64,000 nucleotides of DNA from contig NC_085140.1 of the NCBI RefSeq assembly GCF_024139115.2, positions 464,473,506 through 464,537,505 on the forward strand. Direction: 5' to 3'. The position numbers and the translations under genes are program-made. This DNA comes from Armigeres subalbatus (Eukaryota > Arthropoda > Insecta > Diptera > Culicidae). The notes under the pieces were generated by a model. That model worked only from the letters and a program-made list of their open reading frames with translations, did not search any database and had not been told where the DNA came from. This document shows, piece after piece, positions 3,917-60,267 of the stretch (position 1 is the first letter of the stretch; each line of letters begins with the position of its first letter).

Positions 3917-3951
<35 letters not shown>
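3754..3951 (+). mobile_element. non-LTR copy 0: 3' stub with poly(A)
   Basis: About 160 bases of unassigned sequence end in AATAAA (3910-3915), GATT and a run of 32 A (3920-3951). The tail matches the AATAAAGAT-poly(A) ends of the other copies, so this is the 3' end of a non-LTR element. No coding part remains, and its left limit against the gypsy LTR is not certain. Confidence 0.55.
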
Positions 3952-3957
<6 letters not shown>

Positions 3958-5338
3958 GAGTCCGCCGTCGATATCACTATGGCCTCGAGCGGCGTCTTGG
4001 GTCGGCTTCTCTGGTCCACTGATGGGGACCCAAGAGGTAGTGATCACTCGCCCATCCTCGTGGCCCTGGACAGCACTCCCACAAACATCACCCGCCGACC
4101 ACGATGGAAATATGGAGAGGCGGACTGGGGCAGTTTTCAGCGGGAGATCGAACGCGAGCTGCCCCTACGTCCCGACCAGTCAATCTCCGAGATCTCCAAC
4201 ATCATCCTCCAAGCGGCAGAAGGTACCATCCCCAGGACTAGTCCCAACCCGGGTCGCAAGGCCGTCCATTGGTGGAGCGACACCACCAAAAAGGCGGTGA
4301 AAGCCAGGCGCAAGGCGCTCCGAGCGCTGAAAAAAGCCAAGGCACGGCTTCCAGCTAACGACCAGCGCCTCGTCGAGATCCGTTCCAAGTACCAAACAGC
4401 CCGGAACGATTGCCGCCAAACACTACGCGACACGAAAGACAAAGCCTGGGTCGACTTTCTAGACGGGATCAATCCGGATCAGTCCTCGACCGAACTCTGG
4501 AGGCGAATCAACGCATTCCAAGGTAAGCGACGAGCAAACGGAATTACCCTGAGCGTTAACGGCGTTACCCACCGGGACCCGGAGGTCGTGGCTGACGCAC
4601 TAGCCGACCATTTCCACCGACAATCATCCTTCCTGGAGTATCCCGAAGACTTCCGCAAAAAACATCCTGCTCCCACGGCGGAAATCGCTTCCTTCCAAGT
4701 TCCACCGGACAATGGCAACGATATAAACCGACCCTTCACCATGGCCGAACTGGATTTCGCCCTCCAAAAAGGCAGCGGTAAGTCAGCCGGCCCGGACGGC
4801 ACCGGCTACCAAATGTACCGAAACCTCCCACCGTGTGGCAAGGCGGCCTTCCTGAAGGCTATCAACCAGGAGTGGATCAACGGCACTTTCCCTGCAGAGT
4901 GGAGAACCAGCTTGGTAGTCCCGATACCTAAAAGCCAGGGCCCAGCGAATGAAGCCGGAAGCTACCGACCCATCGCCCTCACCAATGTTGGCTCCAAAAT
5001 TATGGAGCGAATGGTCAACCGTCGCCTAACGCATTTCTTGGAGACCTCAGGTAAGATCAACCACCGCCAACACGCTTTCCGTTCCGGCCGTGGTACCGGA
5101 ACATATCTCGCTTCTCTCGGCCAAATCCTGGAAGAGGCTAAGACACAAGACAAACACGTCGAGCTCGTGTCCCTCGACATCTCCCGTGCGTACAACCGCG
5201 CATGGACCCCCGGCGTCCTCAAGAAACTGGCACTCTGGGGTGTCTCCGGTAATCTCCTCACCTTTATCAAAAATTTTTTAATCGACCGCTCGTTCCGAGT
5301 CTTACTCGGCAACCATACATCAAAATCGATGAAGGAGG
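3952..5338 (+). mobile_element. non-LTR copy 1, left part (5'-truncated)
   Basis: It begins directly after the poly(A) of copy 0, inside the endonuclease coding region, and is cut at 5338 by copy 2. The rest of copy 1 resumes at 17345. The two halves share GATGAAGGAGG at the break, so they are one element split by an insertion. Confidence 0.92.
3952..5338 (+). pseudogene. copy 1 ORF2 fragment: EN end and RT fingers/palm
   Basis: In frame from 3952 (reads SAVDITMASS). It holds the last EN motif SDHSPILVALD near 4040, the linker region, and the first part of RT with KGSGKSAGPDGTGYQM near 4780 and SLDISRAYNRAWTPG near 5175. It stops being retrotransposon-coded at 5338, within the codons just before the EETGVPQGS motif. 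The open frame then runs by chance into copy 2 until 5412. The EN N-terminal half is missing because of 5' truncation, so the copy is dead irrespective of the insertion. Confidence 0.9.
5328..5338 (+). repeat. target-site duplication of copy 2, left
   Basis: GATGAAGGAGG, 11 bases, identical to 17345-17355. The length fits the 10-14 bp duplications made by I-type elements. Confidence 0.9.
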
Positions 5339-6218
5339 CCAGCAAATCGTTTGCAGTCGAGCTGAACAGACGCGTTTTTCTGTTAGCTCTCGCTCGGTTG
5401 ATAGCTTTTTAATTTGTTCACTGTGTGTCCTGTGTAACAAATTTTAAATCTTGTTTTGTCCGTTATTTTAAATCGTGGTGTCGTAAATCGTTACGTGTTA
5501 CGTGTCCGCGACGAACCGTGGGTGTACTCCGACCGGATTCCGGTTTTTACCGGCCCTAATCGGCCGGATTGTCCCTGCCTAACCGGCAGTGAAGTGCCAG
5601 GACAAAGGACGGTTATCCGATAAAAGTGTGGTAGTTTTCGCGTGAAGCCTTCGGAGGCTTGAGCCCCCTACCGAACTGGGTCGGAGGGGGCCCAGAAGTG
5701 CTAAAAGAACTGGCCACAAACATTGCCAGCCATCCTAGTGACAATAGCAATAAGTGAAGCCAAGCCAAAATCTAAACCCAAGCGTGACCGGCGTCCAGGT
5801 CATTGCCCACCAGTTGACCTGACCTGACCCGATACAGAAGTGCGAAGAGAACATTAGTGCATACTCACCGTATACTCACCTCCACCGGTGGGGCGGTTGC
5901 CCGGAAAGTGTACCAGTGTTGAAAGCGGGAGTGAAATCGGCGCTCAGAGCGGACACATCGAGAAGTGAAGAGACAAGTTTCGGTTACCGGGTTGACAGTT
6001 TCTATCGCGGCGGAGTGAACCTTTAGTGCGACGAGCGGAAGATCCGCACAAAGTGGACTGCAAAGAGAGTCCGATCTCACAATCGGCTCTCCGAAGAGCG
6101 GACAAGAAGACCTAAAGTGAGTGGGGACTTTCGGTGAAATATTTCAAAACCTAGTGAGTGCGAGTAACTGCTCCCCCCGCGCGGTGAGCTTCTCGCTGCT
6201 GCTGCCAACCCGGCAGCA
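5339..6218 (+). promoter_or_regulatory. copy 2 5'UTR and presumed internal promoter
   Basis: 880 bases from the 5' junction to the ORF1 start. A GCAGTCG near 5356 resembles an insect initiator, and GACGCG follows some 14 bases later; this fits the downstream promoters of non-LTR elements but is only suggestive. GC-rich inverted repeats (for example CCGGATTCCGG and CGGCCGG at 5540-5580) could fold in the RNA. Confidence 0.5.
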
Positions 6219-7703
6219 ATGAACGGGGGAGATTCCCCTTGGTGGAATGATCCACCGCCCGGTGGATCAAGATTGATTGATGGAAGTCATACGGGTCCGA
6301 CTCTCCCTCCATTTATGGACGGAGAAAATATGCATGGGTCCCTTCATATTCTCCGGTTATCGGCGGTAAGTGGGTCTCTTCCTAAAATTCCTTTTACTAT
6401 CAGGAAGTCCGTCCAACAACACGTCCACGGCAAGATCGATGGCGCCTTCCCCGAGGCACAAGGCACGACGTACGCCCTGAAGGTGAGAAACATGCGTCAG
6501 GTCAAAGCCTTGCTCTCGATGACCGCACTAATCGATGGAACTCCAGTCACCGTTACCGAACATCCGAACCTTAACACCACCAGATGCGTTGTAAGCTGTC
6601 GTGACGTCATCACCATGTCCGATGCCGAGCTTCTCGAGGAGCTGAAAGACCAAGGAGTAAGGGAGGTTAGACGCATCACTCGCAAAAACGGAGAAGGAAG
6701 AGAGAATACGCCGACGATGATAGTTACCGTTAGTGGTACAACGATGCCGAGTTTCATCGATTTCGGTTACATCCGGTGTCGAACTCGGCCATATTATCCG
6801 TCGCCCATGCAGTGCTTTACCTGCTGGGCCTTCGGTCACACCGCAAAGCGCTGCCAGGCCAAATCCCCCGTCTGCGGCAAATGCTCGGGCAATCACGATA
6901 TTGCAGAGGACAGAAGTTGCTCCAACAACAAATTTTGCTCCCGCTGTCAGTCCGATGAGCATGCGCTGTCGGAGCGCTCATGCCCGGCCTACAAAAGAGA
7001 AAACGAGATTCAAAGAATTAAAGTCGACCTTGGATTATCTTACCCTGCCGCCAGGAGAGCTTACGACTCGAGACACAGTAACAACGCTTATGCTAACATC
7101 CTCCCCCGCAACGACAACAACAACGAAGACAACATAAGGCAGATCATGGCACAAAAAGACGCGGAAATAGCTGAGCTCCGTGCGGCACTTTCTTCCCGTG
7201 CCCAACCAACCACCCCCAAGGATGACACGACCATCGCAGATCTCAGAACAATAATAGCCCAACAAGCAGAACAAATATCCCAGCTAACCACACAGTTGAA
7301 TAGCTTCCTCAGAACCGTTATGCCAGCCAATTACATCACCCCCCCCTCAGCAGAAACCCCCCCTACACAAAAAGCCACCCGAAAAACCACCATCGAAAGC
7401 AACCCCGAAACCGACCCGTTCGAAGGCATCTTCACCGACTCTAACGATTCGGTGAACATTAGTGACACGGAAGTCACACCGACACCAGCTACTCAAATGG
7501 AAACAACAAGATCATCGGGCGCAGTCCCAAAGTCTCTATTCCAAAAGGACAACGGACCAAAGGCTGCACCCAAAGCCCAAAGAAGCAACCAACCATTACC
7601 TCCCTCTAGCACCCCCGCGAAGCGCTCCCTCTCGAGCGTTTCTCCAGCCGACCCAGCAAATCCGCAGCAGCAGAAGAGGACCAAACAGAAAGCAAACCGG
7701 TAA
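6219..7703 (+). CDS. copy 2 ORF1: gag-like RNA-binding protein
   Basis: Intact 494-residue protein. Three zinc knuckles follow each other at about residues 201-260: CFTCWAFGHTAKRC, CGKCSGNHDIAEDRSC and CSRCQSDEHALSERSC. They are followed by the conserved ENEIQRIKVDLGLSYPAARR stretch. The region after residue ~300 is Gln/Glu-rich with heptads (QIMAQKDAEIAELRAAL) and probably a coiled coil; the C-terminus is Pro/Ser/Thr-rich and basic. By family knowledge it binds element RNA and forms the ribonucleoprotein. The start ATG at 6219 is the first in frame and precedes the conserved N-terminal region. The stop lies 21 bases before the ORF2 ATG. Confidence 0.92.
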   Translation: MNGGDSPWWNDPPPGGSRLIDGSHTGPTLPPFMDGENMHGSLHILRLSAVSGSLPKIPFTIRKSVQQHVHGKIDGAFPEAQGTTYALKVRNMRQVKALLSMTALIDGTPVTVTEHPNLNTTRCVVSCRDVITMSDAELLEELKDQGVREVRRITRKNGEGRENTPTMIVTVSGTTMPSFIDFGYIRCRTRPYYPSPMQCFTCWAFGHTAKRCQAKSPVCGKCSGNHDIAEDRSCSNNKFCSRCQSDEHALSERSCPAYKRENEIQRIKVDLGLSYPAARRAYDSRHSNNAYANILPRNDNNNEDNIRQIMAQKDAEIAELRAALSSRAQPTTPKDDTTIADLRTIIAQQAEQISQLTTQLNSFLRTVMPANYITPPSAETPPTQKATRKTTIESNPETDPFEGIFTDSNDSVNISDTEVTPTPATQMETTRSSGAVPKSLFQKDNGPKAAPKAQRSNQPLPPSSTPAKRSLSSVSPADPANPQQQKRTKQKANR

Positions 7704-7724
7704 CGCATCACGCTTTAAACAACA

Positions 7725-10700
7725 ATGTCAATCCCCTATCAAAAAGGAACTGAGTCACCATCGGCAACGAATTCCACAGTAGCAAATGCCCCATTAACCG
7801 GTAAAAGAACCCACTACTCGTTACCCAAAGCTGCTTTTTCTGACTCAACGATCTATGACCGGATTCTCAGTCAAGCCTTCGGCCCCAACCTCAAAATTGG
7901 AGCCCAATCGACATCTACAAGCCATCTTTTTTCTGCCGTCGGGGCGGCCCTGCCCGTGGTTGGTCAACCCGCGGTACCGATCACGGGTGGTAAACCGCCT
8001 TGTTCGTGCCCGTCCAGCCCGCTATCACCGCTTGCTAAGCCTTTCATCCCTCGGCAAACACGAAGTAACCAGTCTTTCCTCCCACTGGAGGAGCTTGGGC
8101 AGCCCAAGTTCCGCAGCCCGGTCTTGGGTCGTAAGTCCCACCCTTGCAATCGTCGCAATCTTGATGGAATAACGCCGCCACTATACGTTCTACCGTTATC
8201 TGCGCTAACGAGTTCGCTGATTTATGACCAATTTTTAACCGATGTCTTTGGTCCCATACCAGGATTAGGAGTCGCCTCCTTCTCAAACAAACATTTTTTT
8301 CCTGCCGTCGGGGTTGCCCTGCCCGTGGTCGGTCAACCAACGGTACCGGTCACGGGTAGTAAGTCACCTTGTTCGTGCCCACCGGGTCGACTTTCACCAT
8401 ACGCTGAACCGTTCCTCCCATCCAGCTATTCCCAAAGAATAAATAGCACCGGTACCAGTGAGCTTGGGCAGCCCAAGTTCCGCAGCCCGGTCTTGGGTCG
8501 TAAGTCCCACCACGTTCGCCGTAGCAACTCATACCAAGAAATAGCCGATAGCTCGATGTCCACTCCACCCGCCTCTGTGCCTGATGTCGGGACGACTCTG
8601 TCCACGAGGGGTTGTCTCCCGCCTGGTCCTCATCCGGATAACTCTTCTCTCTCTTCGATTCCGGGATACTCATCCCAGAACCCAAATCAACAAGGCTGCA
8701 ACGCATCTATCGACTTATCAGCGCCAGTTTTCCCACGTCCAACCCAGCCGGCTGCAACAAACTTCTGTTTGCAATGGAACCTAAATGGCTATTGGAATAA
8801 TCTTCCCAATCTTGAGCTGCTGACCAACCATAGCCAACCCTGGACAATTGCGTTGCAGGAAGTGAACAAAGTCTCTGACGACAGACTGTCGAAAACTCTT
8901 AACGGAAAATATCGGTGGCACCACAAAATCGGCGCTAACTTTCGACATTCGGTGGCGATAGGAGTTCTAGAAAGAATACCCCACGACTTTCTGGAACTCG
9001 ACACCGATTTACCAGCGATCGGGGTTAGGATTAAAGGTTCCATTAACATTACGCTACTCAATCTATACCTGCCTTGCGGTCCGCTAAAGACCTCAAAAGG
9101 AAATTGGACAAGCTTATCAAATCCACTCCTGGTCCATATATGGTTGTAGGAGACATGAACGCGCACCACCCCCAATGGGGTGGAGGTCGTGCCGACCCTA
9201 GAGGAAGAATCATCCTGGACTGGCTAGAGAGCAACGATATAGCCCTACTAAATGACGGCAGTCCAACCTTTTTCAACGGGCACGTTCACACGTCAATCGA
9301 CATCACCGCAATCAGCCAACAACGGGTACCCAACTTTCAATGGTCCGCCTGTACGGATTTGTATGGTAGCAACCATTTCCCGCTACAAATAACGAGTAAC
9401 GTTATCATCGCAGAACCCAGCTGTAGACCTCGCTGGCGGTATGATAAAGCCGATTGGCGGCTTTTCCAAGACAACGTTAGCTTAGAAATCGAAAGAGACA
9501 CACCTACGAACATCCAACAGTTGACCAAGATCATCCACAACTCAGCGCTCCAATCGATACCTAGAACAAACCCCCGGCAGGGCCGCCGAGCCTTGCGTTG
9601 GTGGACAGCTGAGACTCGCCAAGCAGTCAAAGCTCGCAGAAAGGCACTTCGAAAACTTAGAAAGCTGCTACCCACCGATCCAGACCATGAAATCTACGCA
9701 GAAAACTACCGAAAAAAACACGCCGAATGCCGGTCAATCATCCAAGAGGCCAAGAGAACATCCTGGGAAAATTTCCTAGATTCCATCAACCCAGCGCAAT
9801 CCACAACCGAACTGTGGAACAAGGTGAACGCAGTTAGCGGGAAAAGGAAAACTACCGGCATCACACTGGATCTAGGAAACTCAACGATATCAGAACCTAC
9901 AGAAGTTGCTAACACACTGGGAGACTACTTCGCATCACTAGTCACAATGGGCTCCTATCCACAGCAATTCCAGAAGAAAGCACGCAGAGAACTACCCCTT
10001 ATCGAGAAACTAACCGCACACGCCGAAACATTACCATCACCATTAGATCGTCCTTTTTCCATGGAGGAACTCACCTTCGCCCTGACCAAAAGCCAGGGGA
10101 AGTCAGCGGGCCCCGATGGCGTCGGCTACCCGCTCATAAAGCAGCTGCCAACCCATGCAAAATACATTATGTTAGAACTGCTAAACAAAGTATGGACCGA
10201 ACAAACCTTCCCGGATGAATGGAGAGAAAGTACAGTCATTCCTATTCCAAAAAGCAAAGTACCCTCCAGAGATGTATCAAAATTTCGCCCAATATCACTC
10301 ACGTCCTGTCTATCCAAAGTACTCGAAAGACTAGTTAACAGAAGACTACGAGAAAAACTGGAACACGAAGGGCGGATCGACCAGAGACAACACGCCTTTC
10401 GAGCGGGATATGGAACCAACACATATTTTGCCGCCCTCGGAGAAGTCCTACAAGACGCCTACTCTCGAGGAAAGCATGTGGAGTTAATTTCGCTAGACCT
10501 CGCCAAAGCTTACAATAGAACTTGGACTCCATTAGTTCTGAAGCAATTGGCGAAATGGGATATCAACGGAAACACTCTTGCGTTCTGTCGTAACTTTATG
10601 GCCAACCGGTCCTTTAAAGTTTTCATCGGGAATAGTTCCTCCAAAAGCTTCAACGAAGAGACTGGGGTGCCGCAAGGGTCAGTGTTGGCGGTTACACTAT

Positions 10701-12364
10701 TTTTGATAGCAATGAACAGCGTGTTCGAGTCGCTGCCTGCCAATATACATATATTTGTATACGCTGACGATATTCTCCTGGTAGTTATCGGGGACACACC
10801 AGGAAGGAACCGAATAAGAGCGCAAACGGCAGTCACCGCAGTACATCAATGGGCTATGTCAATGGGATTCACAATGTCAGCAACCAAATCGGTTAGAGGC
10901 CACGTGTGCCAATATAAACACCGACTCTCCGGCCCGGCAATCAAAATCGATGGCCAAATAATCCCGAATAAAAAGACGGTGAGAACACTTGGGGTCCAAA
11001 TCGATCGGAACTTATCTTTCCAACAACATTTCGACGGGGTTAAAGCAAGCTGCCAAACCAGGGTAAACCTAATGAAAACCATCAGCAGGCCGCTCAAAAC
11101 CAACAACAGGAAAATCCGTCTTCAAGTGGGGAAAGCTATTATTGACAGTCGACTGTTATATGGAATCGAACTCACGTGTATCGGAGGGGACAGAATCATC
11201 AAGACCTTGGCTCCCACATACAACAGCTATATTCGGATCATATCTGGCCTCTTACCATCAACCCCTGCGGAGTCGGCATGCGCCGAACTAGGAGTATTAC
11301 CCTTCAGACTCAGGGTACAATCTTCCATCACGAGTAAAGCGGCGAGCATTGCAGCCAAAACAGCAGGAGAAGAAAGAACCTTTTTACTCAGAAAGGGAAA
11401 CAGCTTCCTACGGGTAATCTGCAACAAAACGCTACCGTTAATCTCCAAAGTTCATTGGCACGGCGCTACACCATGGGAACGACCACCTATCAAGGTGGAA
11501 AACAAAATTAAAAACAATTTTAAAAAAGGGGATAATTCGGTAAAACTAAGACAAGCAGTAACCGAACTTATCCAAACTCGATACGCCAATTATGAGCATC
11601 GGTACACCGACGGATCGATATCAGCCCGAGGAGCAGGCATTGGAATAAAAGGAAGAAACATGACAGCCTCCTACAGCCTAAATCAGAATGTGTCGATCTT
11701 TTCGGCAGAAGCGGCGGCTATATTCTTTGCTATATCACAACCAGCTGAGAAACCAATACTGATCCTGTCAGATTCAGCTAGTGTGATTTCGGCACTAGAG
11801 TCGTCGTCACCCAACCATCCATGGATCCAATCGATTATTGCCAACTCTCCAACATCTACAGTTTTCGCATGGGTTCCAGGACACTGTGGCATCCCAGGCA
11901 ATGTGGACGCCGACATCCTAGCGGCGACAGGACACGGGGAAGAACGTCTCACCGAAACGGTTCCCCTCGGGGACAGTAAAAAATGGATTGTTAAATCTTT
12001 CCAAGAAGCGTGGGAGGCACAATGGTCCCAAACTCGTGTACCCCAGCTTCGAAAAATTAAAGGCACTACAACGGCTTGGGAAGATCTGCCCTCTACGAGG
12101 AATCAACAAATACTATCAAGACTTAGAACCGGTCACGTAAGATTTGCTTATTCCTATGAGAAAAGCCCTTTTAGAATAACATGCAGCTCCTGTGACGTCC
12201 ACAACTCAGTAGAACACGTTCTATGCAACTGTCCGCAATACGAGTTCCCGAGGAACCTGTATGGACTAACAAACAGCATCAGAGAAACCCTAGGCAGAGA
12301 CAGCATTAACATTGGAGCACTTTTCGATTTTCTCAAAGATGCCCAACTCTTACATCAAATCTGA
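7725..12364 (+). pseudogene. copy 2 ORF2: EN-RT-RNase H polyprotein, one frameshift
   Basis: The ATG at 7725 opens a frame that runs through a ~340-residue N-terminal extension into EN (LQWNLNGYWNNLPNLELL near 8770, ALQEVNKVS near 8850). Near 9078-9090 the frame shifts by one base. The second frame continues to 12364 with GDMNAHHPQWGG, EN end GSNHFPLQI, RT (GKSAGPDGVGYP, ETGVPQGSVLAVTLFLIAM, VYADDILLVVIG near 10760), RNase H (RYTDGSISARGAG, FSAEAAAIFFA, LSDSASVISAL, WVPGHCGIPGNVDADILA) and the C-terminal finger CSSC..H..C near 12185. Everything except the single frameshift is intact. It is either a very recent loss or a sequence error. Confidence 0.9.
7835..8572 (+). repeat. in-frame 123-codon duplication in ORF2 N-terminus
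   Basis: Two copies with a period of 369 bases. Both encode IYDxxLxxxFGP, then (A)VALPVVGQP.VP.TG.K.PCSCP, and end in ELGQPKFRSPVLGRKSH. Each contains a 12-bp stem, 7953-7964 with 7976-7987 and 8322-8333 with 8345-8356, which keeps pairing despite base changes between the copies. Confidence 0.85.
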
Positions 12365-12498
12365 GCGATAGAGCCAGTCGGCTTTTTTGGATTCGAGTAG
12401 TTTGTAACAACCTATTGCCTCATAACCCGACAGAAGAAGAAACCAGACATCGTACAAAACCGTGAAGCACAAAACCAGCAGCCTGGGTCGGTGACGGC

Positions 12499-12571
12499 CC
12501 TGGAACCGCCGGGGCGCCCCCAACCGGAAGCTATCGGGACCGGAATGGGGATCCCCCCTGGCGTGCCCAGG
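12499..12571 (+). ncRNA. four-helix hairpin motif, instance 1
   Basis: Outer P1 CCTGG/CCAGG, P2 GCCGGGG/CCCCTGGC, P3 CCCCA/TGGGG, P4 CCGG/CCGG. It lies in non-coding 3'UTR. Confidence 0.75.
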
Positions 12572-12767
12572 AGCGATACGCCCTCCCCAGCTTACACAAC
12601 ACGGACACCAAACTCGGGGTCGAACTTTGAAATGCTGAAGCAGTAACATCCTGCTTTACAACACCGCACCCTCCTGCCTTCCGTTGCTATTTCATGGCCT
12701 CCACAAAGCCACATTCTACACCAAACATGCGAGAACAGAATATCTCCTTGCTCGGGACGATGACGGC

Positions 12768-12842
12768 CCTGGGACTGCCGGGTCGCCCCCAACCGGAAGC
12801 ATTTTCGGGACCGGAATGGGGATCCCTCTCGGCTTTCTCGGG
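12768..12842 (+). ncRNA. four-helix hairpin motif, instance 2
   Basis: P1 CCTGGGA/TCTCGGG (two wobbles), P2 GCCGGG/TCTCGGC with a wobble, P3 CCCCA/TGGGG, P4 CCGG/CCGG. Non-coding. Confidence 0.75.
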
Positions 12843-13062
12843 AGCGATGCGTCCTCCCCAGCGCGACAAGGACCAACGTCAATCCAGCGAGATAAATTCG
12901 ACAATTCCACGAACGGTTGACTTACTGCGACAATTCAACGGTTAACTAGTTCACCGCCAAGGCTCCCATGTGATGTCCCATGTGACGTCTTCACCGATGC
13001 AGCATCCAGCACCAAACACAGCGACATCTGAATCTCCGAATTTGCTTGGGACGACGACGGCC

Positions 13063-13133
13063 CCTGGACTGTCGGGTCGCCCCCAACCGGAAGCTCTTTG
13101 GGACCGGAATGGGGATCCCTCCCGGCTTTCCAG
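13063..13133 (+). ncRNA. four-helix hairpin motif, instance 3
   Basis: P1 CCTGG with CCAG at the junction of the two 0.7-kb units, P2 GTCGGG/CCCGGC, P3 CCCCA/TGGGG, P4 CCGG/CCGG. Non-coding. Confidence 0.7.
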
Positions 13134-13198
13134 AAGAAGAAACCAGACATCGTACAAAACCGTGAAGCACAAAACCAGCAGCCTGGGTCGGTGACGGC

Positions 13199-13271
13199 CC
13201 TGGAACCGCCGGGGCGCCCCCAACCGGAAGCTATCGGGACCGGAATGGGGATCCCCCCTGGCGTGCCCAGG
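13199..13271 (+). ncRNA. four-helix hairpin motif, instance 4
   Basis: Second-unit copy of instance 1, same pairing. Confidence 0.75.
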
Positions 13272-13467
13272 AGCGATACGCCCTCCCCAGCTTACACAAC
13301 ATGGACACCGAACTCGGGGTCGAACTTGGAAATGCTGAAGCAGTAACATCCTGCTTTACAACACCGCACCCTCCTGCTTTCCGTTGCTATTTCATGGCCT
13401 CCACAAAGCCACATTCTACACCAAACATGCGAGAACAGAATATCTCCTTGCTCGGGACGATGACGGC

Positions 13468-13542
13468 CCTGGGACTGCCGGGTCGCCCCCAACCGGAAGC
13501 ATTTTCGGGACCGGAATGGGGATCCCTCTCGGCTTTCTCGGG
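13468..13542 (+). ncRNA. four-helix hairpin motif, instance 5
   Basis: Second-unit copy of instance 2, same pairing. Confidence 0.75.
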
Positions 13543-13753
13543 AGCGATGCGTCCTCCCCAGCGCGACAAGGACCAACGTCAATTCAGCGAGATAAATTCG
13601 ACAATTCCACGGACGTTGCGACATTTCAACGGTTAATTAGTTCACCGCCAAGGCTCCCATGTGATGTCCCATGTGACGTCTTCACCGATGCAGCATCCAG
13701 CACCAAACACAGCGACATCTGAATCTCCGAATTTGCTTGGGACGACGACGGCC

Positions 13754-13825
13754 CCTGGACTGTCGGGTCGCCCCCAACCGGAAGCTCTTTGGGACCGGAA
13801 TGGGGATCCCTCCCGGCTTTCCAGG
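13754..13825 (+). ncRNA. four-helix hairpin motif, instance 6
   Basis: Second-unit copy of instance 3, with full P1 CCTGG/CCAGG. Confidence 0.75.
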
Positions 13826-14155
13826 GAGCGAAACGTCCTCTCCAGCACTCAAAGGAATCCTCCAGTACAGCAAAACACACGGTGGAAACTAGTTTCGGTT
13901 GGCCTACTGCCGACATCATTGACCTCAACCACACTGACGTAATTCCCGCAAATCCAGAATTTAAACCTGGTGGACAACTGGGAAATTATTTGCCGAATTT
14001 CCACGACTAGTTCTTTTCGCTCGCCGGATTACTGCCAACCTTCTTTTTGAAAACAGCATTAAGCTTTGACGATCTTAACCCACAAATCCAGCAACCTGGC
14101 GCTGGTGGACAACTGGGCTTTTCTCTAAGCAGCTCCTCTCGCTCGACGGCAATGC

Positions 14156-14230: not shown

Positions 14231-14304
14231 CCTTCTTCAGCAATCCACCGCTCTCTCGAGCGCCTCATCACCAACGTCAAATGGAAGATAATCTCCGGCT
14301 ACAG

Positions 14305-51001: not shown

Positions 51002-51281
51002 CGACCTGGTAACCCGAATCGACAAACCCCCGAAGAAATTATACCGACCCCCGCAAACCCACCCTGACACTTCTACGGACACCTCTACACAAACTGCCCC
51101 ACGCTGGAACTATCACCGGAAAATCACAACATACCACGGACATCCAAACGGAAAATGCACCAACCCTGTTGGAAAGCGAAAATAGAATAGTTAATTTGCT
51201 ACGGCACCCTTCCGGGCCGATAACCAACATAGAATAACAAATTTTGTATTATAAAATGTAATCTTTCCCCTTTCTCTTGCC
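51002..51281 (+). other. copy 12 3'UTR
   Basis: Non-coding, nearly identical to those of copies 5 and 6. Confidence 0.8.
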
Positions 51282-51320
51282 GGAGACGAGCCAGCCTCGG
51301 GCTGAAAGTCTCCTTAATAA

Positions 51321-51327
<7 letters not shown>
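51282..51327 (+). promoter_or_regulatory. 3'-terminal hairpin of copy 12
   Basis: GGAGAC/GTCTCC and CAGCC/GGCTG, then TTAATAAAGTCAAT and poly(A). Confidence 0.7.
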
Positions 51328-51351
<24 letters not shown>

Positions 51352-51354
51352 AAA

Positions 51355-54300
51355 GCTCTGGGGGGGAGCACACCACCGCCACAATCCTGGTCCAACACCT
51401 CCTTTTTTCCGTCGCCTCCCCCATCTCTGCCGGTTGCGGGTTCCGGACCCACAACGTCATCCACGACGCTGGCTCTCCAGTGGAACATTAATGGTTACTA
51501 CAATAACCTATGTGACCTGGAGCTGCTAGTATCGAGCTCGAGCCCGGTGACCATCGCACTCCAGGAAATCCACCGAGCGACGCCTGCCGCCCTAGACCGG
51601 ACACTCGGTGGCCGGTATAAATGGTTTGCGTCAATCGAGCCGAACGTTTATCGGTCAGCTGCAGTGGGAGTCCTGAAAGAAGTACCCGCCACGGAAATCC
51701 CAATAGTCGCAGACTTCCCCATCGTTGCGGTGAGGATAGAATGGCCGCTCCCAGTAACGGTTGTCTCGATCTACATCCCCAGCGGCAAACGGCCGAATCT
51801 CAAGAACACCCTGGTGAGTATGATCGAAAACCTCCCATCCCCCGTAATCATCCTGGGCGATGTCAACGGACACCACCAATCCTGGGGTGGCCGCACGAAC
51901 AATGCTAGAGGGATCGCCATATCCAATGCCGCGGCCGAAGCCGGCCTCATCCTGCTTAACGACGGCACCCCGACCTTCCGCCGAGGGTCCACGGAGTCCG
52001 CTGTCGACGTCTCGATGGCCTCGAGCGGCTTAATGAGTAGGCTTCTCTGGTCCACCGACGGGGACCCCAGAGGTAGCGACCACATGCCGATACTCCTGGC
52101 CCTGGACAGCGCCCCCACCGACATCACTCGCAGACCACGATGGCTATACGGAGACGCGGACTGGGACAGTTTTCAGCGGGAGATCGAACGCGAGCTGTCC
52201 CAGTTCCCGCAACCATCCACGACCGACATCTCCGACGCCATTCTGCACGCCGCGGAGCGCGCTATCCCCAGAACCAGCCCCAACCCGGGCCGTAAAGCCG
52301 TCCACTGGTGGTGTGACGACACCAAAAAAGCGGTTAAAGCCCGACGGAAGACCCTCCGCGCGCTGCAGAAGGCTAAAAAGCGACACCCCGCTGACAACCA
52401 GCTCCTCGAAGAGATAAAGTCCAGCTACCAGGCCGCCAGGAACAACTGCCGACAAACCCTGCGCGAGGCCAAGGACAAGGCATGGACTACCTTCCTGGAC
52501 GGGATAAATCCGGAGCAGTCCTCGACCGAGCTCTGGAGGCGGATAAACTGCTTCCAGGGGAAACGACGTGCCAATGGAATCGCCCTCTCCGTCGACGGCG
52601 TCACGCATCGTGACCCCACGATCGTGGCCGATACACTAGCCGACCATTTCTATCGGCAATCGTCGTACGCCGAGTACCCAGAAGCATTCCGGAAGAAGCA
52701 TCCGCCCCCTGCGTCGGATATAGCCGCCTTCGTAGTACCACCCGACAACGGCGACGCCATGAACCGGCCATTCTCCATGGCTGAACTAGAATTCGCTCTT
52801 CAGAAAGGTAAGGGCAAATCCGCCGGCCCGGACTCCACCGGGTACCCCATGTACCAGAAACTACCCCCAAGCGGAAAGTCCGCCTTTCTGGAGGCGATTA
52901 ACAGGGAGTGGACTAGTGGCACCCTCCCAGCGGATTGGAAAGAGAGTCTCGTGGTCCCGATTCCAAAAACGGAGGCCCAGCAAACGAGGCGGGAAGCTAT
53001 CGGCCAATAGCTTTGACAAATGTCGGCTCCAAAATTATGGAGCGAATGGTAAACCGGCGGCTGACCCACTACCTCGAGTCTACAGGTAAACTAGATGACC
53101 GACAACACGCCTTCAGACCCGGACGCGGTACAGGAACGTACCTTGCCTCCCTGGGGGAGATCCTCGATGAAGCCAAGTCCCAAGGTAAGCACGCCGAGCT
53201 GGTGTCCCTGGATATATCGCGCGCCTACAACCGCGCGTGGACCCCCGGTGTTTTGAAGAAGCTGGCACTCTGGGGTGTCTCCGGCAACCTCCTCCACTTC
53301 ATTAAGAATTTTTTGTCGGACCGCTCCTTCCGAGTGCTCCTCGGAAACTGCGTATCCAAGCCCGTGAGGGAGGAAACCGGAGTGCCCCAGGGCTCGGTTA
53401 TCGCCGTGACGCTATTCCTTGTCGCCATGGAAGAAGTGTTCGCCGACCTGCCAAGAGACGTGTACATCTTAGTATACGCAGACGACATCCTCCTAGTGGC
53501 AGTGGGCGAGCACCCCAAGAAGCTCCGGAGGAAGATCCAGTCCGCCGTCAGCAGGGTAGGCAGATGGTGCCTCTCAGCTGGCTTTGTTATGTCTGCCGGT
53601 AAGTGCGTGAGAACGCACGTTTGCCAGAGTAATCACCGACCCCCCGGCCAGCCCATCGTACTTAACGGTGCAACCGTTCCCACCAAATCATCGGTCAAAC
53701 TCCTGGGAGTTACAGTGGATCGTCACCTGACCTTCGCAGAGCACTGCAAAAGGACCAAAGAAGCCTGCAAGGTAAGAAATAATATGATGAAACTGATTTC
53801 CAGGAGGAGGACCCGCAGCGACCGAGGCCTACGCCTTCGTGTAGCGGACGCAGTGATCACGAGCCGCCTGCTCTATGGCTTGGAGCTCACCTCGGTGAAC
53901 CTGCCGGAAATCACCCGCTCCCTAGCCCCGGTGTACAACCGCGCGGTTAGGTTGGTTTCAGGGCACCTTCCATCAACACCCGCAGACATCGCTTGCGCCG
54001 AGGCCGGCGTAATACCGTTCCGCCACAAAGTTACTGCCTCCCTCAGCACCAAAACCGTCAGTTTTCTCGAGAAAACCAAGGCCTCCAACAGCACTTGCCA
54101 CCTTCTCGGCAGGGCCGATGAAGCGTTTCACCATACCACCCAACAACCACTCCCCAAGATCGCTGGACTTCACCGCCTCGGTCCAAGGGACTGGGCCTCC
54201 AGGGCCCCGAAAATCGATTGGTCTCTAAAAGCCCAGCTACGCAGAAACCCCAACCAGCAGCTGGCTCAGCGACTTTTCGGTGAGCGGATTAACGCCAGGT

Positions 54301-55079
54301 ACAGGACACACACGGTCAGATACACCGATGGATCCAGAGCCGCCGGCAAAGTGGGTATCGGAGTCGACTCTACCGACGGTTCGACTCAGTCCCACAGGCT
54401 ACCGAACACCTGCTCCGTCTTCTCGGCGGAAGCCGCTGCCATCTTTCAAGCGGTGTCCCAGCCGTGCAGCGGACCCATGCTGATCGTGTCCGACTCGGCT
54501 AGCGCCCTCTCCGCCCTGCCCTCCGCAGCAAATCGCCATCCATTCATCCAGGCCATCCAGGAGAACATCGATGAAAAGACCACCCTGATGTGGGTCCCTG
54601 GCCACGCTGGCATCGCTGGCAACGAAAGCGCCGACATCTTGGCCAACATCGGCAGAGCCAGTCCACTGATTACCCGCAGCGTCCCGGCCGACGATGCGAA
54701 GCGCTGGATTAAACAGCAGGTGAGCAATGCCTGGGCTAACGAGTGGCACAAGGAGCGGAACCTATGCAGAATGGTTAAGGGCTCCACCCTTCCCGGAACA
54801 GACCTGCCCAACCGCCGTGAGCAGATGGTGCTGTCCCGACTGCGTACGGGGCACACCAATCTAACGCATAACCTGGGCTCTGGGGATTTCCACCATCGCT
54901 GCACCACCTGCCAATGTAGAAACACCATCAGTCACATCATCAACAACTGCCCTGAATACGAAGGAGCACGGCAAGCCAACAACATCGGCAACGCGGTCGA
55001 GGCACTCAACAACAATCCCATCAACGAACGACTGCTTATCAACTTTTTAAAGGATAGCAAACTATACTACCGGATTTGA
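51355..55079 (+). pseudogene. copy 13 ORF2: EN-RT-RNase H, one frameshift
   Basis: Complete EN (LALQWNINGYYNNLCDLELL, ALQEIHR, GDVNGHHQSWGG, SDHMPILLALD), then RT from KGKSAGPDSTGYPM. A single base is missing from the A run near 52970 (VPIPK), where copy 14 keeps it. The next frame has SLDISRAYNRAWTPG, EETGVPQGSVIAVTLFLV, VYADDILLVAVG (near 53473), RNase H motifs, CTTCQCRNTISHIINNC and the end FLKDSKLYYRI. Apart from that base and the lost N-terminus the protein is intact. Confidence 0.9.
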
Positions 55080-55370
55080 CAACACCCCCCCAAATGATAC
55101 TGACCCCTGCAAACCAACCCTGACAACTCTATGGAATACGGAACACAAACTACCACGCCAGATCACCACCGGAAAAACGCTATGCACTACGGACATGACA
55201 TGGACAATGCACCAACCTCGTTGGAAACCGAAATCTAGAATAACCAATTATTACGGCTCCCCTCAGGACCAACATTATTTTTTGCCACGGCACCCTTCCG
55301 GGCCGAAATCGATCCTAGGTTATCAAATTTTTCTGTAAAACACTATGTATTATACTCTCTTTTTCTCGCC
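55080..55370 (+). other. copy 13 3'UTR
   Basis: Non-coding; the same as in copy 14 apart from a few bases. Confidence 0.8.
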
Positions 55371-55415
55371 GGAGACGAGCCAGCCTCGGGCTGAAAGTCT
55401 CCTTAATAAAGACAC
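55371..55415 (+). promoter_or_regulatory. 3'-terminal hairpin of copy 13
   Basis: GGAGAC/GTCTCC and CAGCC/GGCTG, then TTAATAAAGACAC and poly(A). Confidence 0.7.
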
Positions 55416-55428
55416 AAAAAAAAAAAAA

Positions 55429-58400
55429 CATCCCCAGCGGCAAACGGCCGAATCTCAAGAACACCCTGGTGAGTATGATCGAAAACCTCCCATCCCCCGT
55501 AATCATCCTGGGCGATGTCAACGGACACCACCAATCCTGGGGTGGCCGCACGAACAATGCTAGAGGGATCGCCATATCCAATGCCGCGGCCGAAGCCGGC
55601 CTCATCCTGCTTAACGACGGCACCCCGACCTTCCGCCGAGGGTCCACGGAGTCCGCTGTCGACGTCTCGATGGCCTCGAGCGGCTTAATGAGTAGGCTTC
55701 TCTGGTCCACCGACGGGGACCCCAGAGGTAGCGACCACATGCCGATACTCCTGGCCCTGGACAGCGCCCCCACCGACATCACTCGCAGACCACGATGGCT
55801 ATACGGAGACGCGGACTGGGACAGTTTTCAGCGGGAGATCGAACGCGAGCTGTCCCAGTTCCCGCAACCATCCACGACCGACATCTCCGACGCTATTCTG
55901 CACGCCGCGGAGCGCGCTATCCCCAGAACCAGCCCCAACCCGGGCCGTAAAGCCGTCCACTGGTGGTGTGACGACACCAAAAAGCGGTTAAAGCCCGACG
56001 GAAGACCCTCCGCGCGCTGCAGAAGGCTAAAAAGCGACACCCGCTGACAACCAGCTCCTCGAAGAGATAAAGTCCAGCTACCAGGCCGCCAGGAACAACT
56101 GCCGACAAACCCTGCGCGAGGCCAAGGACAAGGCATGGACTACCTTCCTGGACGGGATAAATCCGGAGCAGTCCTCGACCGAGCTCTGGAGGCGGATAAA
56201 CTGCTTCCAGGGGAAACGACGTGCCAATGGAATCGCCCTCTCCGTCGACGGCGTCACGCATCGTGACCCCACGATCGTGGCCGATACACTAGCCGACCAT
56301 TTCTATCGGCAATCGTCGTACGCCGAGTACCCAGAAGCATTCCGGAAGAAGCATCCGCCCCTGCGTCGGATATAGCCGCCTTCGTAGTACCACCCGACAA
56401 CGGCGACGCCATGAACCGGCCATTCTCCATGGCTGAACTAGAATTCGCTCTTCAGAAAGGTAAGGGCAAATCCGCCGGCCCGGACTCCACCGGGTACCCC
56501 ATGTACCAGAAACTACCCCCAAGCGGAAAGTCCGCCTTTCTGGAGGCGATTAACAGGGAGTGGACTAGTGGCACCCTCCCAGCGGATTGGAAAGAGAGTC
56601 TCGTGGTCCCGATTCCGAAAAACGGCGGCCCAGCAAACGAGGCGGGAAGCTATCGGCCAATAGCTTTGACAAATGTCGGCTCCAAAATTATGGAGCGAAT
56701 GGTAAACCGGCGGCTGACCCACTACCTCGAGTCTACAGGTAAACTAGATGACCGACAACACGCCTTCAGACCCGGACGCGGTACAGGAACGTACCTTGCC
56801 TCCCTGGGGGAGATCCTCGATGAAGCCAAGTCCCAAGGTAAGCACGCCGAGCTGGTGTCCCTGGATATATCGCGCGCCTACAACCGCGCGTGGACCCCCG
56901 GTGTTTTGAAGAAGCTGGCACTCTGGGGTGTCTCCGGCAACCTCCTCCACTTCATTAAGAATTTTTTGTCGGACCGCTCCTTCCGAGTGCTCCTCGGAAA
57001 CTGCGTATCCAAGCCCGTGAGGGAGGAAACCGGAGTGCCCCAGGGCTCGGTTATCGCCGTGACGCTATTCCTTGTCGCCATGGAAGAAGTGTTCGCCGAC
57101 CTGCCAAGAGACGTGTACATCTTAGTATACGCAGACGACATCCTCCTAGTGGCAGTGGGCGAGCACCCCAAGAAGCTCCGGAGGAAGATCCAGTCCGCCG
57201 TCAGCAGGGTAGGCAGATGGTGCCTCTCAGCTGGCTTTGTTATGTCTGCCGGTAAGTGCGTGAGAACGCACGTTTGCCAGAGTAATCACCGACCCCCCGG
57301 CCAGCCCATCGTACTTAACGGTGCAACCGTTCCCACCAAATCATCGGTCAAACTCCTGGGAGTTACAGTGGATCGTCACCTGACCTTCGCAGAGCACTGC
57401 AAAAGGACCAAAGAAGCCTGCAAGGTAAGAAGTAATATGATGAAACTGATTTCCAGGAGGAGGACCCGCAGCGACCGAGGCCTACGCCTTCGTGTAGCGG
57501 ACGCAGTGATCACGAGCCGCCTGCTCTATGGCTTGGAGCTCACCTCGGTGAACCTGCCGGAAATCACCCGCTCCCTAGCCCCGGTGTACAACCGCGCGGT
57601 TAGGTTGGTTTCAGGGCACCTTCCATCAACACCCGCAGACATCGCTTGCGCCGAGGCCGGCGTAATACCGTTCCGCCACAAAGTTACTGCCTCCCTCAGC
57701 ACCAAAACCGTCAGTTTTCTCGAGAAAACCAAGGCCTCCAACAGCACTTGCCACCTTCTCGGCAGGGCCGATGAAGCGTTTCACCATACCACCCAACAAC
57801 CACTCCCCAAGATCGCTGGACTTCACCGCCTCGGTCCAAGGGACTGGGCCTCCAGGGCCCCGAAAATCGATTGGTCTCTAAAGCCCAGCTACGCAGAAAC
57901 CCCAACCAGCAGCTGGCTCAGCGACTTTTCGGTGAGCGGATTAACGCCAGGTACAGGACACACACGGTCAGATACACCGATGGATCCAGAGCCGCCGGCA
58001 AAGTGGGTATCGGAGTCGACTCTACCGACGGTTCGACTCAGTCCCACAGGCTACCGAACACCTGCTCCGTCTTCTCGGCGGAAGCCGCTGCCATCTTTCA
58101 AGCGGTGTCCCAGCCGTGCAGCGGACCCATGCTGATCGTGTCCGACTCGGCTAGCGCCCTCTCCGCCCTGCCCTCCGCAGCAAATCGCCATCCATTCATC
58201 CAGGCCATCCAGGAGAACATCGATGAAAAGACCACCCTGATGTGGGTCCCTGGCCACGCTGGCATCGCTGGCAACGAAAGCGCCGACATCTTGGCCAACA
58301 TCGGCAGAGCCAGTCCACTGATTACCCGCAGCGTCCCGGCCGACGATGCGAAGCGCTGGATTAAACAGCAGGTGAGCAATGCCTGGGCTAACGAGTGGCA

Positions 58401-58731
58401 CAAGGAGCGGAACCTATGCAGAATGGTTAAGGGCTCCACCTTCCCGGAACAGACCTGCCCAACCGCCGTGAGCAGATGGTGCTGTCCCTGACTGCGTACA
58501 GGGCACACCAATCTAACGCATAACCTGGGCTCTGGGGATTTCCACCATCGCTGCACCACCTGCCAATGTAGAAACACCATCAGTCACATCATCAACAACT
58601 GCCCTGAATACGAAGGAGCACGGCAAGCCAACAACATCGGCAACGCGGTCGAGGCACTCAACAACAATCCCATCAACGAACGACTGCTTATCAACTTTTT
58701 AAAGGATAGCAAACTATACTACCGGATTTGA
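55429..58731 (+). pseudogene. copy 14 ORF2: EN(partial)-RT-RNase H, several frameshifts
   Basis: The frame is broken near 55983, 56040, 56360, 57882, 58440 and 58487. At the first five sites copy 13 has one more base of an A or C run; at the last, copy 14 has an extra base. All catalytic motifs are present in the pieces (EETGVPQGSVIAV near 57028, VYADDILLVAVG near 57126, RYTDGSRAAGK near 57972, WVPGHAGIAGNESADILA near 58245). Confidence 0.9.
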
Positions 58732-59022
58732 CAACACCCCCCCAAATGATACTGACCCCTGCAAACCAACCCTGACAACTCTATGGAATACGGAACACAA
58801 ACTACCACGCCAGATCACCACCGGAAAAGCGCTATGCACTACGGACATGACATGGACAATGCACCAACCTCGTTGGAAACCGAAATCTAGAATAACCAAT
58901 TATTACGGCTCCCCTCAGGACCAACATTATTTTTTGCCACGGCACCCTTCCGGGCCGAAATCGATCCTAGGTTATCAAATTTTTCTGTAAAACACTATGT
59001 ATTATACTCTCTTTTTCTCGCC
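58732..59022 (+). other. copy 14 3'UTR
   Basis: Non-coding; matches copy 13. Confidence 0.8.
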
Positions 59023-59067
59023 GGAGACGAGCCAGCCTCGGGCTGAAAGTCTCCTTAATAAAGACAC
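59023..59067 (+). promoter_or_regulatory. 3'-terminal hairpin of copy 14
   Basis: GGAGAC/GTCTCC and CAGCC/GGCTG, then TTAATAAAGACAC and poly(A). Confidence 0.7.
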
Positions 59068-59091
59068 AAAAAAAAAAAAAAAAAAAAAAAA

Positions 59092-60267
59092 TCCTGGAAT
59101 TTCCCGGATTTAGTTCTCTCCCTCGCTCCGGTGTACAACCGATCCATCCGGCTAATCTCCGGACTATTGCCATCGACGCCCGCCGACATAGCCTGCGCGG
59201 AAACCGGCGTTCTGCCCTTCCGCTTCAAGGCTGCCTCAGCGCTGTGCACCAAAGCGGCAAGCTATTCAGAAAAAACCAAAGCAAACTCAGTTTCTTGCAG
59301 CCTCCTTGATCGCGCGGATGAAATTTTCCACCAAACCTGCCACCTAAGGATGCCCAAGGTGGTTGGCCTCCATCATCTTGGCCCCAAAAGCTGGAACGAA
59401 CCGAAGCCAAACATTGACCTCACCCTCAAGAAACAGCTCCGTCGAGAACCGAATAAGTTGGTCGCCCAAAGGCTCTTCCAACAGCGGATCCACGAAAAGT
59501 ACTCAGCATCCATCATCCGGTACACCGACGGGTCCAAAGCTGCGGGAAGAGTCGGCCTCGGTGTCGATTCCAGCGACGGCTCCACCGAAACACATCGCCT
59601 ACCAAACATGACCTCCGTTTTCTCGGCTGAAGCTGCGGCGATTTTCCGCGCCGTTGCCCGTCCAACTGATGGCCACACCTTAGTTGTCACCGATTCAGCC
59701 AGCGTGCTGGCTGCGCTCTCGTCCGATTCAAGTCGCCATCCATACATCCAGGCCATCCAACTGGCACTGAAAAGCAACATTACCTTGATGTGGGTTCCCG
59801 GCCACTCCGGCATTCAAGGGAATGAAAGCGCTGATATCCTGGCGAACATCGGGCGCAGCAGCCCGTACCTTTGCCGAGCAGTCCCAAACGATGACGCAAA
59901 GAAATGGATCCGGCAGCAAATGGCTGCTGCATGGGCCGGCGAATGGCGAAGTCAACGAAATTTCTGTAGAATGGTTAAGAATTCCACTCTCCCCGGCGAA
60001 GACCTGTTGAATCGCCGGGAACAGGTGGTACTTTCCCGTCTACGAACCGGCCATACAAATATTACGCACAATCTCGGCTCTACTGAATTTCATCGACACT
60101 GCAACGCGTGCAACTGCCGAATAACGGTTGCCCACATCCTGAACCACTGTCCAATCTACGAACTGCCAAGAACAACATACGACATCACCAACGCCGCCGC
60201 TGCTCTGCAGAACGATCGAGTTGGCGAGCAGCAGCTGATCTCCTTTTTGAAGGACTGCCGCCTCTTC
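59092..60267 (+). mobile_element. non-LTR copy 15, left part
   Basis: It starts in the RT thumb after the tail of copy 14. It is cut at its last few codons by copy 16. The remainder (end of ORF2, 3'UTR, tail) is expected beyond the window, after copy 16. Confidence 0.85.
59092..60267 (+). pseudogene. copy 15 ORF2 fragment: thumb, RNase H, Cys/His finger
   Basis: Open from the truncation point. LSLAPVYNRSIRLISGLLPS is followed by RNase H (RYTDGSKAAGR, FSAEAAAIFRA, VTDSASVLAAL, WVPGHSGIQGNESADILA) and CNACNCRITVAHILNHC. The family ending FLKDCRL(Y/F) is interrupted after FLKDCRLF, and the frame runs by chance into copy 16 to a stop at 60292-60294. Confidence 0.88.

What the first reader, a model, noticed from the sequence alone, without database searches (positions are those of the whole stretch)
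3920..59092. Telomere-like head-to-tail array of I-type retrotransposons
Seen: fourteen joints (3951, 19461, 21005, 24839, ~25324, 26268, 32976, 36787, 37772, ~40852, 44444, 51354, 55428, 59091) where the A- or TAA-rich tail of one copy touches the 5' end of the next, always on the + strand, with no unique spacer. Truncation points differ (EN, linker, RT thumb, RNase H, last codons, ORF1), and one copy keeps its 5'UTR. Random insertion would give both strands and leave the left part of each host copy upstream; neither is seen except for copies 2 and 16. Known: Drosophila HeT-A, TART and TAHRE (Jockey clade) build telomeres exactly this way, with the poly(A) toward the centromere. Inference: here I-superfamily elements carrying their own RNase H extend chromosome ends by reverse transcription onto the terminus. 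The left side would be distal. An alternative is preference of each new insertion for the poly(A) tail of an older one.
Basis: partly seen in the sequence, partly recalled or inferred. Interest (0 to 1): 0.9.

Follow-up and report, generated by a model that had tools for sequence, protein, structure and literature searches.

The report
Mosquito chromosome tips of jumping genes
In the mosquito Armigeres subalbatus, several families of jumping genes lie tail-to-head in one direction in long arrays near scaffold ends, where they likely rebuild chromosome tips without telomerase, much as a different set of jumping genes does in fruit flies.

Summary
In detail: all 14 joints are real, LINE matches in the window are on + only, and the next copy begins at the end of the tail. 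The genome is Armigeres subalbatus GZ_Asu_2; the window lies 0.5 Mb from the end of scaffold C2. Its array spans about 139 kb (12 kb unread), from an N run to rDNA. Related clusters lie at the left ends of C1 and C3 and near both ends of C2. Young F2 copies (16 of 70 rows) were listed only there or on an unplaced contig; F1 has one interior exception; F3 is also dispersed. No TTAGG hit lies at an end. Four clusters point as Drosophila HeT-A does; three, the window's included, face them head-to-head, which I read as misplaced end pieces. I favour a telomere built by autonomous I-type LINEs with RNase H and, in one group, a shared covarying 3' hairpin. Rivals: insertion aimed at poly(A) tails, and an rDNA-linked array. 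The telomerase test was uninformative.

The parts
1..3889 (+). 3' part of an LTR retrotransposon (integrase within 18-1403, 3' LTR about 2106-3889) inserted in the 3' UTR of an array LINE
   Evidence: Pfam Integrase_H2C2 and rve; LTR pair with L010:4425-6190 at 98.4%
3890..3951 (+). last ~60 nt and poly(A) tail of the LINE copy (F3/c8 type) that hosts the LTR element; joint 1
   Evidence: same tail as an L012 copy; joint
3952..5338 (+). copy c2, left half (5'-truncated), ends in duplication GATGAAGGAGG 5328-5338
   Evidence: 75% to 51993-53348; uninterrupted relative at C1:1-2565 at 99.4-99.6%
5339..17344 (+). complete 12-kb I-type element ('ins'): long upstream ORFs, EN-RT-RNase H, ~5-kb 3' UTR, TAATAA tail, 11-bp target duplication
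17345..19461 (+). copy c2, right half, hairpin and A25 tail; joint 2
19462..21005 (+). copy c3, family F2, 5'-truncated, tail; joint 3
   Evidence: 96.8% to 53883-55428
21006..24839 (+). copy c4, own family, 5'-truncated, tail; joint 4
24840..25324 (+). copy c5, family F1, last ~490 bp only; joint 5
   Evidence: 99.2% to 50856-51343
25325..26268 (+). copy c6, family F1, last ~940 bp only; joint 6
   Evidence: 99.3% to 50404-51347
26269..32976 (+). copy c7, family F3, 5'-truncated (a relative in L036 has about 1.5 kb more at its 5' side); EN-RT ORF 27513-31541; joint 7
32977..36787 (+). copy c8, F3-related family, 5'-truncated, open RT-RNase H frame; joint 8
36788..37772 (+). copy c9, last ~1 kb of an element; joint 9
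37773..40852 (+). copy c10, 5'-truncated, TAA-type tail; joint 10
   Evidence: 99.3% copy at window coordinates 69558-72642
40853..44444 (+). copy c11, family F3, 5'-truncated; joint 11
   Evidence: 97.8% to 29354-32972
44445..51354 (+). copy c12, family F1, nearly complete (lacks ~60 nt of 5' end); zinc-knuckle ORF 45632-46525, EN-RT-RNase H ORF 46526-51001; joint 12
51355..55428 (+). copy c13, family F2, 5'-truncated; joint 13
55429..59091 (+). copy c14, family F2, 5'-truncated, 99.67% to c13; joint 14
59023..59054 (+). example of the shared 3' hairpin (stem GGAGAC/GTCTCC, inner stem CAGCC/GGCTG) just before AATAAAG and the tail
   Evidence: covariation over 9 copies
59092..60267 (+). copy c15, left half (5'-truncated), ends in duplication CTGCCGCCTCTTC 60255-60267
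60268..64000 (+). copy c16, complete element with 5' UTR, runs on to about window coordinate 67463 in L009, (TAA)n tail

Best explanation
The window is part of a one-way, tail-to-head array of I-type LINEs in the mosquito Armigeres subalbatus that is likely a retrotransposon-built telomere: element RNA would be reverse-transcribed onto a free chromosome end starting at its poly(A) tail, each new copy landing on the eroded 5' end of the last one. Shown: tail-to-head joints without spacer, one strand, many truncation points, at least eight families, related clusters near scaffold ends, F2 young copies listed only in them or on an unplaced contig, and a covarying 3' hairpin next to the tail in one group of families. 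Inferred: that the left side is distal, that the window's piece is an end piece wrongly placed or turned in the scaffold, that the RT binds the hairpin, and that truncation is end erosion or incomplete copying. Two side processes are also seen: ordinary endonuclease insertion of complete copies inside older ones, with target duplications, and a repeated block (window 19314-32524 recurs just left of the window).
For: 14 of 14 joints; 21 of 21 translated stretches on +. Position 0.5 Mb from the end of C2. Further copies at C1:1-30,000 and 33,001-38,000 and C3:1-6868 (read) and at C2:1.05-1.16 Mb and C2:464.35-464.41 Mb (sampled stretches and search rows). In one search, 16 of 70 F2 rows are at 93% or more: 13 in C2 and 1 in C1 within 1.2 Mb of an end, 2 on unplaced contig C1949; the six 1.2-Mb end zones are about 0.5% of the assembly. 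Orientation fits (poly(A) side toward the body) for C3 left, C1 left from 10.84 kb, C2 1.128-1.155 Mb (F3 rows only) and most of C2 464.35-464.406 Mb. C3 starts inside LINE sequence whose tail at 6838-6868 is followed by AT-rich DNA and, from 9.0 kb, a 24-bp satellite. At C2 right an N run of 643 bp lies where the - cluster meets the + array; if it is an assembly gap and not a withheld stretch, the order there rests on scaffolding. TTAGG x4: 11 exact hits, all interior, against 1360 for the reversed control word. The 14 copies that begin at window joints are 5'-truncated, while four copies with target duplications look complete.
Against: The window's array points its poly(A) side toward the near scaffold end, opposite to the model if the scaffold is right. 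About 4 kb beyond its right border lies rDNA (5.8S at L017:2723-2874, 18S pieces at L019:2490-3217), not a plain chromosome arm. F3 copies at 87-98% occur in scaffold interiors, yet F3 and 'ins' copies also stand at tail-to-head joints. One F1 copy (94-98%) lies at C1:223.42 Mb. Two + stretches (464,371,360-464,373,990 and a 71% piece at 464,405,952-464,406,238) lie within the - cluster at C2 right. The last ~10 kb of C1 right, C3 right, C2 right and C2 left hold no copies. The - to + junction at C1:10,841 has no N run. One joint in the left flank (-33156) leads, after about 27 nt, into what looks like a complete F2 start. Only 39 or 40 candidates per search were scored (of 551, 668 and 1533), and one search did not list the query's own place, so the maps are incomplete.
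Confidence: 0.6

Rival explanations
1. Poly(A)-targeted insertion: the element endonuclease would nick the T-rich strand of an older copy's tail, so each new copy is primed there and lands in the same direction behind the old one. No chromosome end is needed; a chain would grow anywhere, and best in silent heterochromatin.
For: It gives the same joints, the same strand and no visible target duplication. F3, which takes part in the joints, is also dispersed, and complete copies insert inside the array by the ordinary route. One joint tail is TAA-type like that of ordinary insertions.
Against: Such chains should then occur in interiors, yet F2 at 93% or more was listed only near ends or on an unplaced contig, and 7 of 9 F1 rows at 93% or more lie near ends; both lists are capped. 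The C3 and C1 scaffolds begin inside LINE copies. The four complete copies sit in non-tail targets, while the 14 copies at window tails are 5'-truncated, a split this idea does not predict; a left-flank F2 copy at a tail that looks complete blurs it.
Confidence: 0.2
2. The window's array is part of the nucleolus organiser: a heterochromatic LINE cluster beside or inside the rDNA, kept by unequal exchange, and not a telomere.
For: 5.8S and 18S pieces flank the 17.5-kb N run right of the array. A 13-kb block of the window is repeated to its left at 96%. The genome paper uses a 28S rDNA probe to mark chromosome 3 (PMC12333114, passages), so the piece may not belong to C2.
Against: The C3-left copies are followed by AT-rich DNA and a 24-bp satellite, and C1-left and C2-left hold the same families. 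rDNA at a subterminal position would fit both ideas. The genome-wide rDNA search was sent and never answered.
Confidence: 0.15
3. Assembly artefact: repeat copies falsely strung together or haplotype copies placed in tandem.
For: 3D-DNA scaffolding with haplotig purging; head-to-head pairs at scaffold ends; the repeated block left of the window could be the other haplotype.
Against: 14 joints with different partners and truncation points lie in one stretch without N, and joints of the same kind occur on scaffold C1. False joins would not respect strand and tail end each time.
Confidence: 0.05

Closest known systems
Drosophila telomeric retrotransposons HeT-A, TART, TAHRE (features recalled)
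   Same: Head-to-tail arrays of mixed families on one strand, 5'-truncated copies, poly(A) joined directly to the next copy's 5' end, no simple telomere repeats.
   Different: Those are Jockey-clade elements; here the elements carry RNase H and some have TAA tails (I type), at least eight families take part, some also insert with target duplications, and F3 is dispersed. Chromosome-end position is by assembly only.
Arrays of retrotransposon-related sequence at fungus gnat (Bradysia coprophila) scaffold ends, PMC12051294 (passages read)
   Same: A lower dipteran in which no TERT or TTAGG ends were found, with retrotransposon-related arrays at scaffold ends.
   Different: There the units are 1.7-3.3 kb repeats sharing about 1.2 kb; here they are separate copies of several LINE families joined at tails, some with long open frames.
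Anopheles telomeres: 820-bp satellite (An. gambiae), 30-32-bp repeats (An. albimanus), PMC7534423 (passages read)
   Same: Mosquito chromosome ends without TTAGG.
   Different: Tandem satellites; that paper finds its repeats unlike the Drosophila telomeric retrotransposons.
I factor-type LINEs of insects (features recalled)
   Same: Endonuclease, RT and RNase H in one ORF, an upstream zinc-knuckle ORF, TAA-type tails in some copies, 9-13-bp target duplications for inserted copies.
   Different: Most copies here form tail-to-head chains; F1 and F2 young copies were listed almost only near scaffold ends.
SART/TRAS of silkworm and Zepp of green algae (recalled, not tested)
   Same: LINEs that gather at or near chromosome ends.
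   Different: SART/TRAS insert into TTAGG repeats; no TTAGG run is seen at the 14 window joints. Zepp forms nested LINE clusters.

Membership tests
I-type LINE | endonuclease, reverse transcriptase and RNase H in one ORF | tested here: met
   c12 and 'ins' (EN, RT, RNase H) and truncated c8 (RT, RNase H); c7's frame 27513-31541 shows EN and RT but no RNase H match
I-type LINE | TAA-type tail and target duplication of about 10-14 bp | tested here: met
   'ins' and c16 have both; most array copies have plain poly(A)
I-type LINE | groups with the I clade in a tree with named reference elements | not tested
   no named reference elements in the tree; the window families fall in one clade of 44 rows whose named rows are all mosquitoes
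Drosophila-type telomere retrotransposons | tail-to-head array on one strand without spacer | tested here: met
Drosophila-type telomere retrotransposons | array is the physical chromosome end | tested here: inconclusive
   C3 and C1 scaffolds begin inside LINE copies, but both ends of C2 and the right ends of C1 and C3 do not
Drosophila-type telomere retrotransposons | poly(A) side toward the centromere | tested here: inconclusive
   four clusters fit, three that face them head-to-head do not, among them the window's
Drosophila-type telomere retrotransposons | family confined to ends | tested here: inconclusive
   F2 yes at 93% or more in the 40 of 551 candidates scored; F1 with one exception; F3 no
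Drosophila-type telomere retrotransposons | Jockey clade | tested here: inconclusive
   RNase H domain present, which Jockey-clade elements are recalled to lack; no Jockey reference was in the tree
Telomerase telomere | TTAGG arrays at chromosome ends | tested here: not met
   11 exact 20-mer hits, all interior; ends missing from the assembly cannot be judged
Telomerase telomere | TERT gene | tested here: inconclusive
   0 matches to PF12009, but it rang in 0 of 14 control genomes too

The most novel reading that the evidence does not exclude
Culicine mosquitoes replaced telomerase with a guild of autonomous I-type LINE families, independently of Drosophila, which recognise a shared 3' hairpin and extend chromosome ends, while keeping an endonuclease and RNase H and still inserting normally inside the array.
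Probability: 0.5. Interest if true: 0.85.

Novelty: new variant of a known kind. Interest (0 to 1): 0.74.

Why it matters
In my ten library searches I saw no account of how Armigeres or Aedes mosquitoes keep their chromosome ends beyond the statement that dipterans lack simple repeats and use retrotransposons. If true, this is a second route by which LINEs became telomeres in flies, from another type of LINE and with long open enzyme frames, so the change from parasite to telomere could be studied at a looser stage than in Drosophila. It makes clear tests possible: tip FISH, BAL31 and long-read ends in a laboratory mosquito.

Tried and rejected
Viral contigs for the 3' hairpin word and for the F1 ORF2: no relatives. 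Rfam and tRNA scans of the window: nothing. Chance or mixed-strand nested insertion: rejected by strand and joints. Head-to-head junction at C1 as a palindromic fold-back: rejected, the two sides are different elements. Telomerase search: no match, but the control was empty, so it says nothing. rDNA map (RF00002) and the c4-family map: not completed. A paper on Aedes genomes was not held. The rows at C2:464,404,738-464,405,896 (-) and 464,405,952-464,406,238 (+) may be one twin-primed copy at about 70%; not pursued.
Full report
WHAT WAS CHECKED. The window holds 64,000 bases without N. Its best named protein matches are mosquito LINE proteins (154 matches, 120 listed). The genome tool places it at C2:464,473,506-464,537,505 of a 1,335,692,571-base assembly. 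C1, C2 and C3 are 318,640,189, 465,049,604 and 430,149,658 bases long, exactly the three scaffolds of Armigeres subalbatus GZ_Asu_2 in PMC12333114 (passages). That paper's main text holds no word beginning with 'telomer'.

THE ARRAY. At all 14 joints a poly(A) or TAA tail is followed at once by the inside of another LINE copy. All translated LINE matches are on +. Families are distinct: c2, c4, c10, F1 (c5, c6, c12), F2 (c3, c13, c14), F3 (c7, c11), c8 and 'ins' are mostly 64-77% alike in DNA; members of one family 96.4-99.7%. The + array goes on at both sides: left to an N run at C2:464,406,258-464,406,900, right to a c10-like tail at C2:464,546,147, followed after about 4 kb by rDNA. That is about 139 kb, of which C2:464,411,477-464,423,505 was not read; F3 rows there are on +. 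In the left flank 9 further tail-to-head joints have no spacer (one of them read). Five of these repeat window joints, because 13 kb of the window (19314-32524) recurs there at 96%.

TWO KINDS OF COPY. Four copies that look complete sit inside other copies with target duplications: 'ins' in c2, c16 in c15, an F1 in an F2 copy left of the window and an F1-like copy in an 'ins' copy at C1:18,206-25,352 (its duplication has one mismatch). All four lie in the same direction as their host. The 14 copies that begin at window joints are 5'-truncated; the longest, c12, lacks about 60 nt. An exception stands in the left flank: the joint at -33156 has about 27 nt of unassigned DNA and then what looks like a complete F2 start. 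I infer two modes: ordinary target-primed insertion, and tail-first addition at an end.

THE 3' HAIRPIN. Nine copies (c3 and c14 of one family, the others of different families or loci) share two stems just before AATAAA and the tail. 96.7% of 90 cells pair; 4 of 10 pairs change on both sides (5 of 500 shuffles reach that); sliding the partner by 1 to 3 columns drops pairing to 44.4% or less. One measure, further pair types, does not exceed the shuffles (5 against a mean of 5.9). The stems were chosen by eye and the copies are related. F3, c8 and 'ins' have a different sequence at that place. That the reverse transcriptase binds it is inference.

WHERE ELSE. F2 search: 70 rows from 40 of 551 candidates; 16 rows at 93% or more, at C2:464.371-464.533 Mb, C2:1.050-1.062 Mb, C1:16.1 kb and contig C1949; the interior rows are at 88% or less. 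F1 search: 79 rows from 39 of 668; 9 rows at 93% or more, 5 at C2:464.4-464.5 Mb, 1 at C1:21 kb, 1 piece of 75 bp at C3:27.7 kb and 2 rows that are one copy at C1:223.42 Mb; the query's own place was not listed, so the list is incomplete. F3 search: 82 rows from 40 of 1533; F3 is widely dispersed as well, e.g. C1:62.77 Mb at 98%. So end restriction holds for F2 as far as listed, nearly for F1, not for F3. The other families were not mapped.

ORIENTATION. With the 5' side outward, as in Drosophila, these fit: C3:1-6868 (+), C1:10,842-38,000 (+; 30,001-33,000 not read), C2:1.128-1.155 Mb (+, four F3 rows) and C2:464.35-464.406 Mb (-, with + pieces at 464.371-464.374 and 464.406). C1:1-10,841 (-), C2:1.050-1.099 Mb (-) and C2:464.407-464.546 Mb (+, the window) do not; each faces a fitting cluster head-to-head, though about 29 kb between the two at C2 left were not read. 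Two of the three carry large outer pieces, and two scaffold ends, C1 right and C3 right, show no copies in their last 10 kb. My reading, untested, is that the outer pieces are those missing ends, or other haplotypes, joined by contacts between clustered tips. The rDNA beside the window's array, with the paper's use of a 28S probe to mark chromosome 3, fits a piece that does not belong to C2. The C1 junction has no N run, which speaks against a simple scaffolding error there. N runs in this genome may be gaps or withheld stretches; I could not tell which.

TELOMERASE. TTAGG x4 gives 11 hits, all interior; the reversed control word gives 1360. PF12009 gives none, but rang in 0 of 14 control genomes, so this is no evidence. 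[quoted passage not shown] PMC8977481 reports no simple repeat motif in 16 dipterans including Aedes albopictus (passages).

TREE. 121 rows, quick method, with warnings about long branches and letter make-up. Window families fall in a clade of 44 rows (SH-aLRT 100) whose named members are all mosquitoes; c2, c4, c10, c12, c13, c14 group together with one Armigeres protein (98), and c7, c8, c11 with 'ins' and one unnamed protein (99, open fork). No reference I or Jockey element was in it.

NOVELTY. Ten searches of the open-access library listed no title or abstract start that describes LINE-built telomeres in a culicine mosquito; one search listed 25 of 385 papers, and I opened passages of five papers only (PMC7534423, PMC12333114, PMC12051294, PMC8977481, PMC10809549). 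PMC9962485, a review of piRNAs in insects that several searches listed, was not opened. PMC8977481 says in passing that dipterans including mosquitoes use retrotransposons as telomeres, and the fungus gnat paper describes retrotransposon-related arrays. Most subscription papers and all preprints are not held. I therefore call it a new variant of a known kind.

Noticed in passing
L017:2723-2874 and L019:2490-3217: rDNA (5.8S, start of 28S by eye, pieces of 18S) lies about 4 kb right of the array on scaffold C2, around a 17.5-kb N run.
   Followed up: partly
C1:10841: A - cluster and a + array meet head-to-head with no N run and no palindrome.
   Followed up: partly
window 19314-32524 and window coordinates -19222 to -6018: A 13-kb block with five joints recurs at 96% (c3-c6 about 99%, c7 about 90-96%): unequal exchange or the other haplotype.
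   Followed up: partly
window 19462, 59092 and window coordinate -34675: Three copies at joints begin within about 30 bp of the same point of ORF2: a possible pause site or microhomology.
   Followed up: no
window 12431-13846: The 12-kb element has a ~5-kb 3' UTR with internal repeats (a 703-bp pair at 97%).
   Followed up: no
L015 (C1 right end): The whole last 10 kb of C1 is an 11-bp AT satellite TAATTTTAATT (906 copies, 98%).
   Followed up: no
L014:8996-9999 and L034:1-4137: A 24-bp satellite (CAGGAATTCCTCCGGAAGTTCCTC) lies about 2 kb inside the terminal LINE of C3.
   Followed up: no
C1:223,424,970-223,428,698: The only interior F1 copy listed at 94-98%; its match stops before the 3' end.
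   Followed up: no
L028:2267-2579: A c2-type fragment without tail precedes an 'ins'-like element whose right side is a different family: a lost host half or a chimeric 5' end.
   Followed up: no
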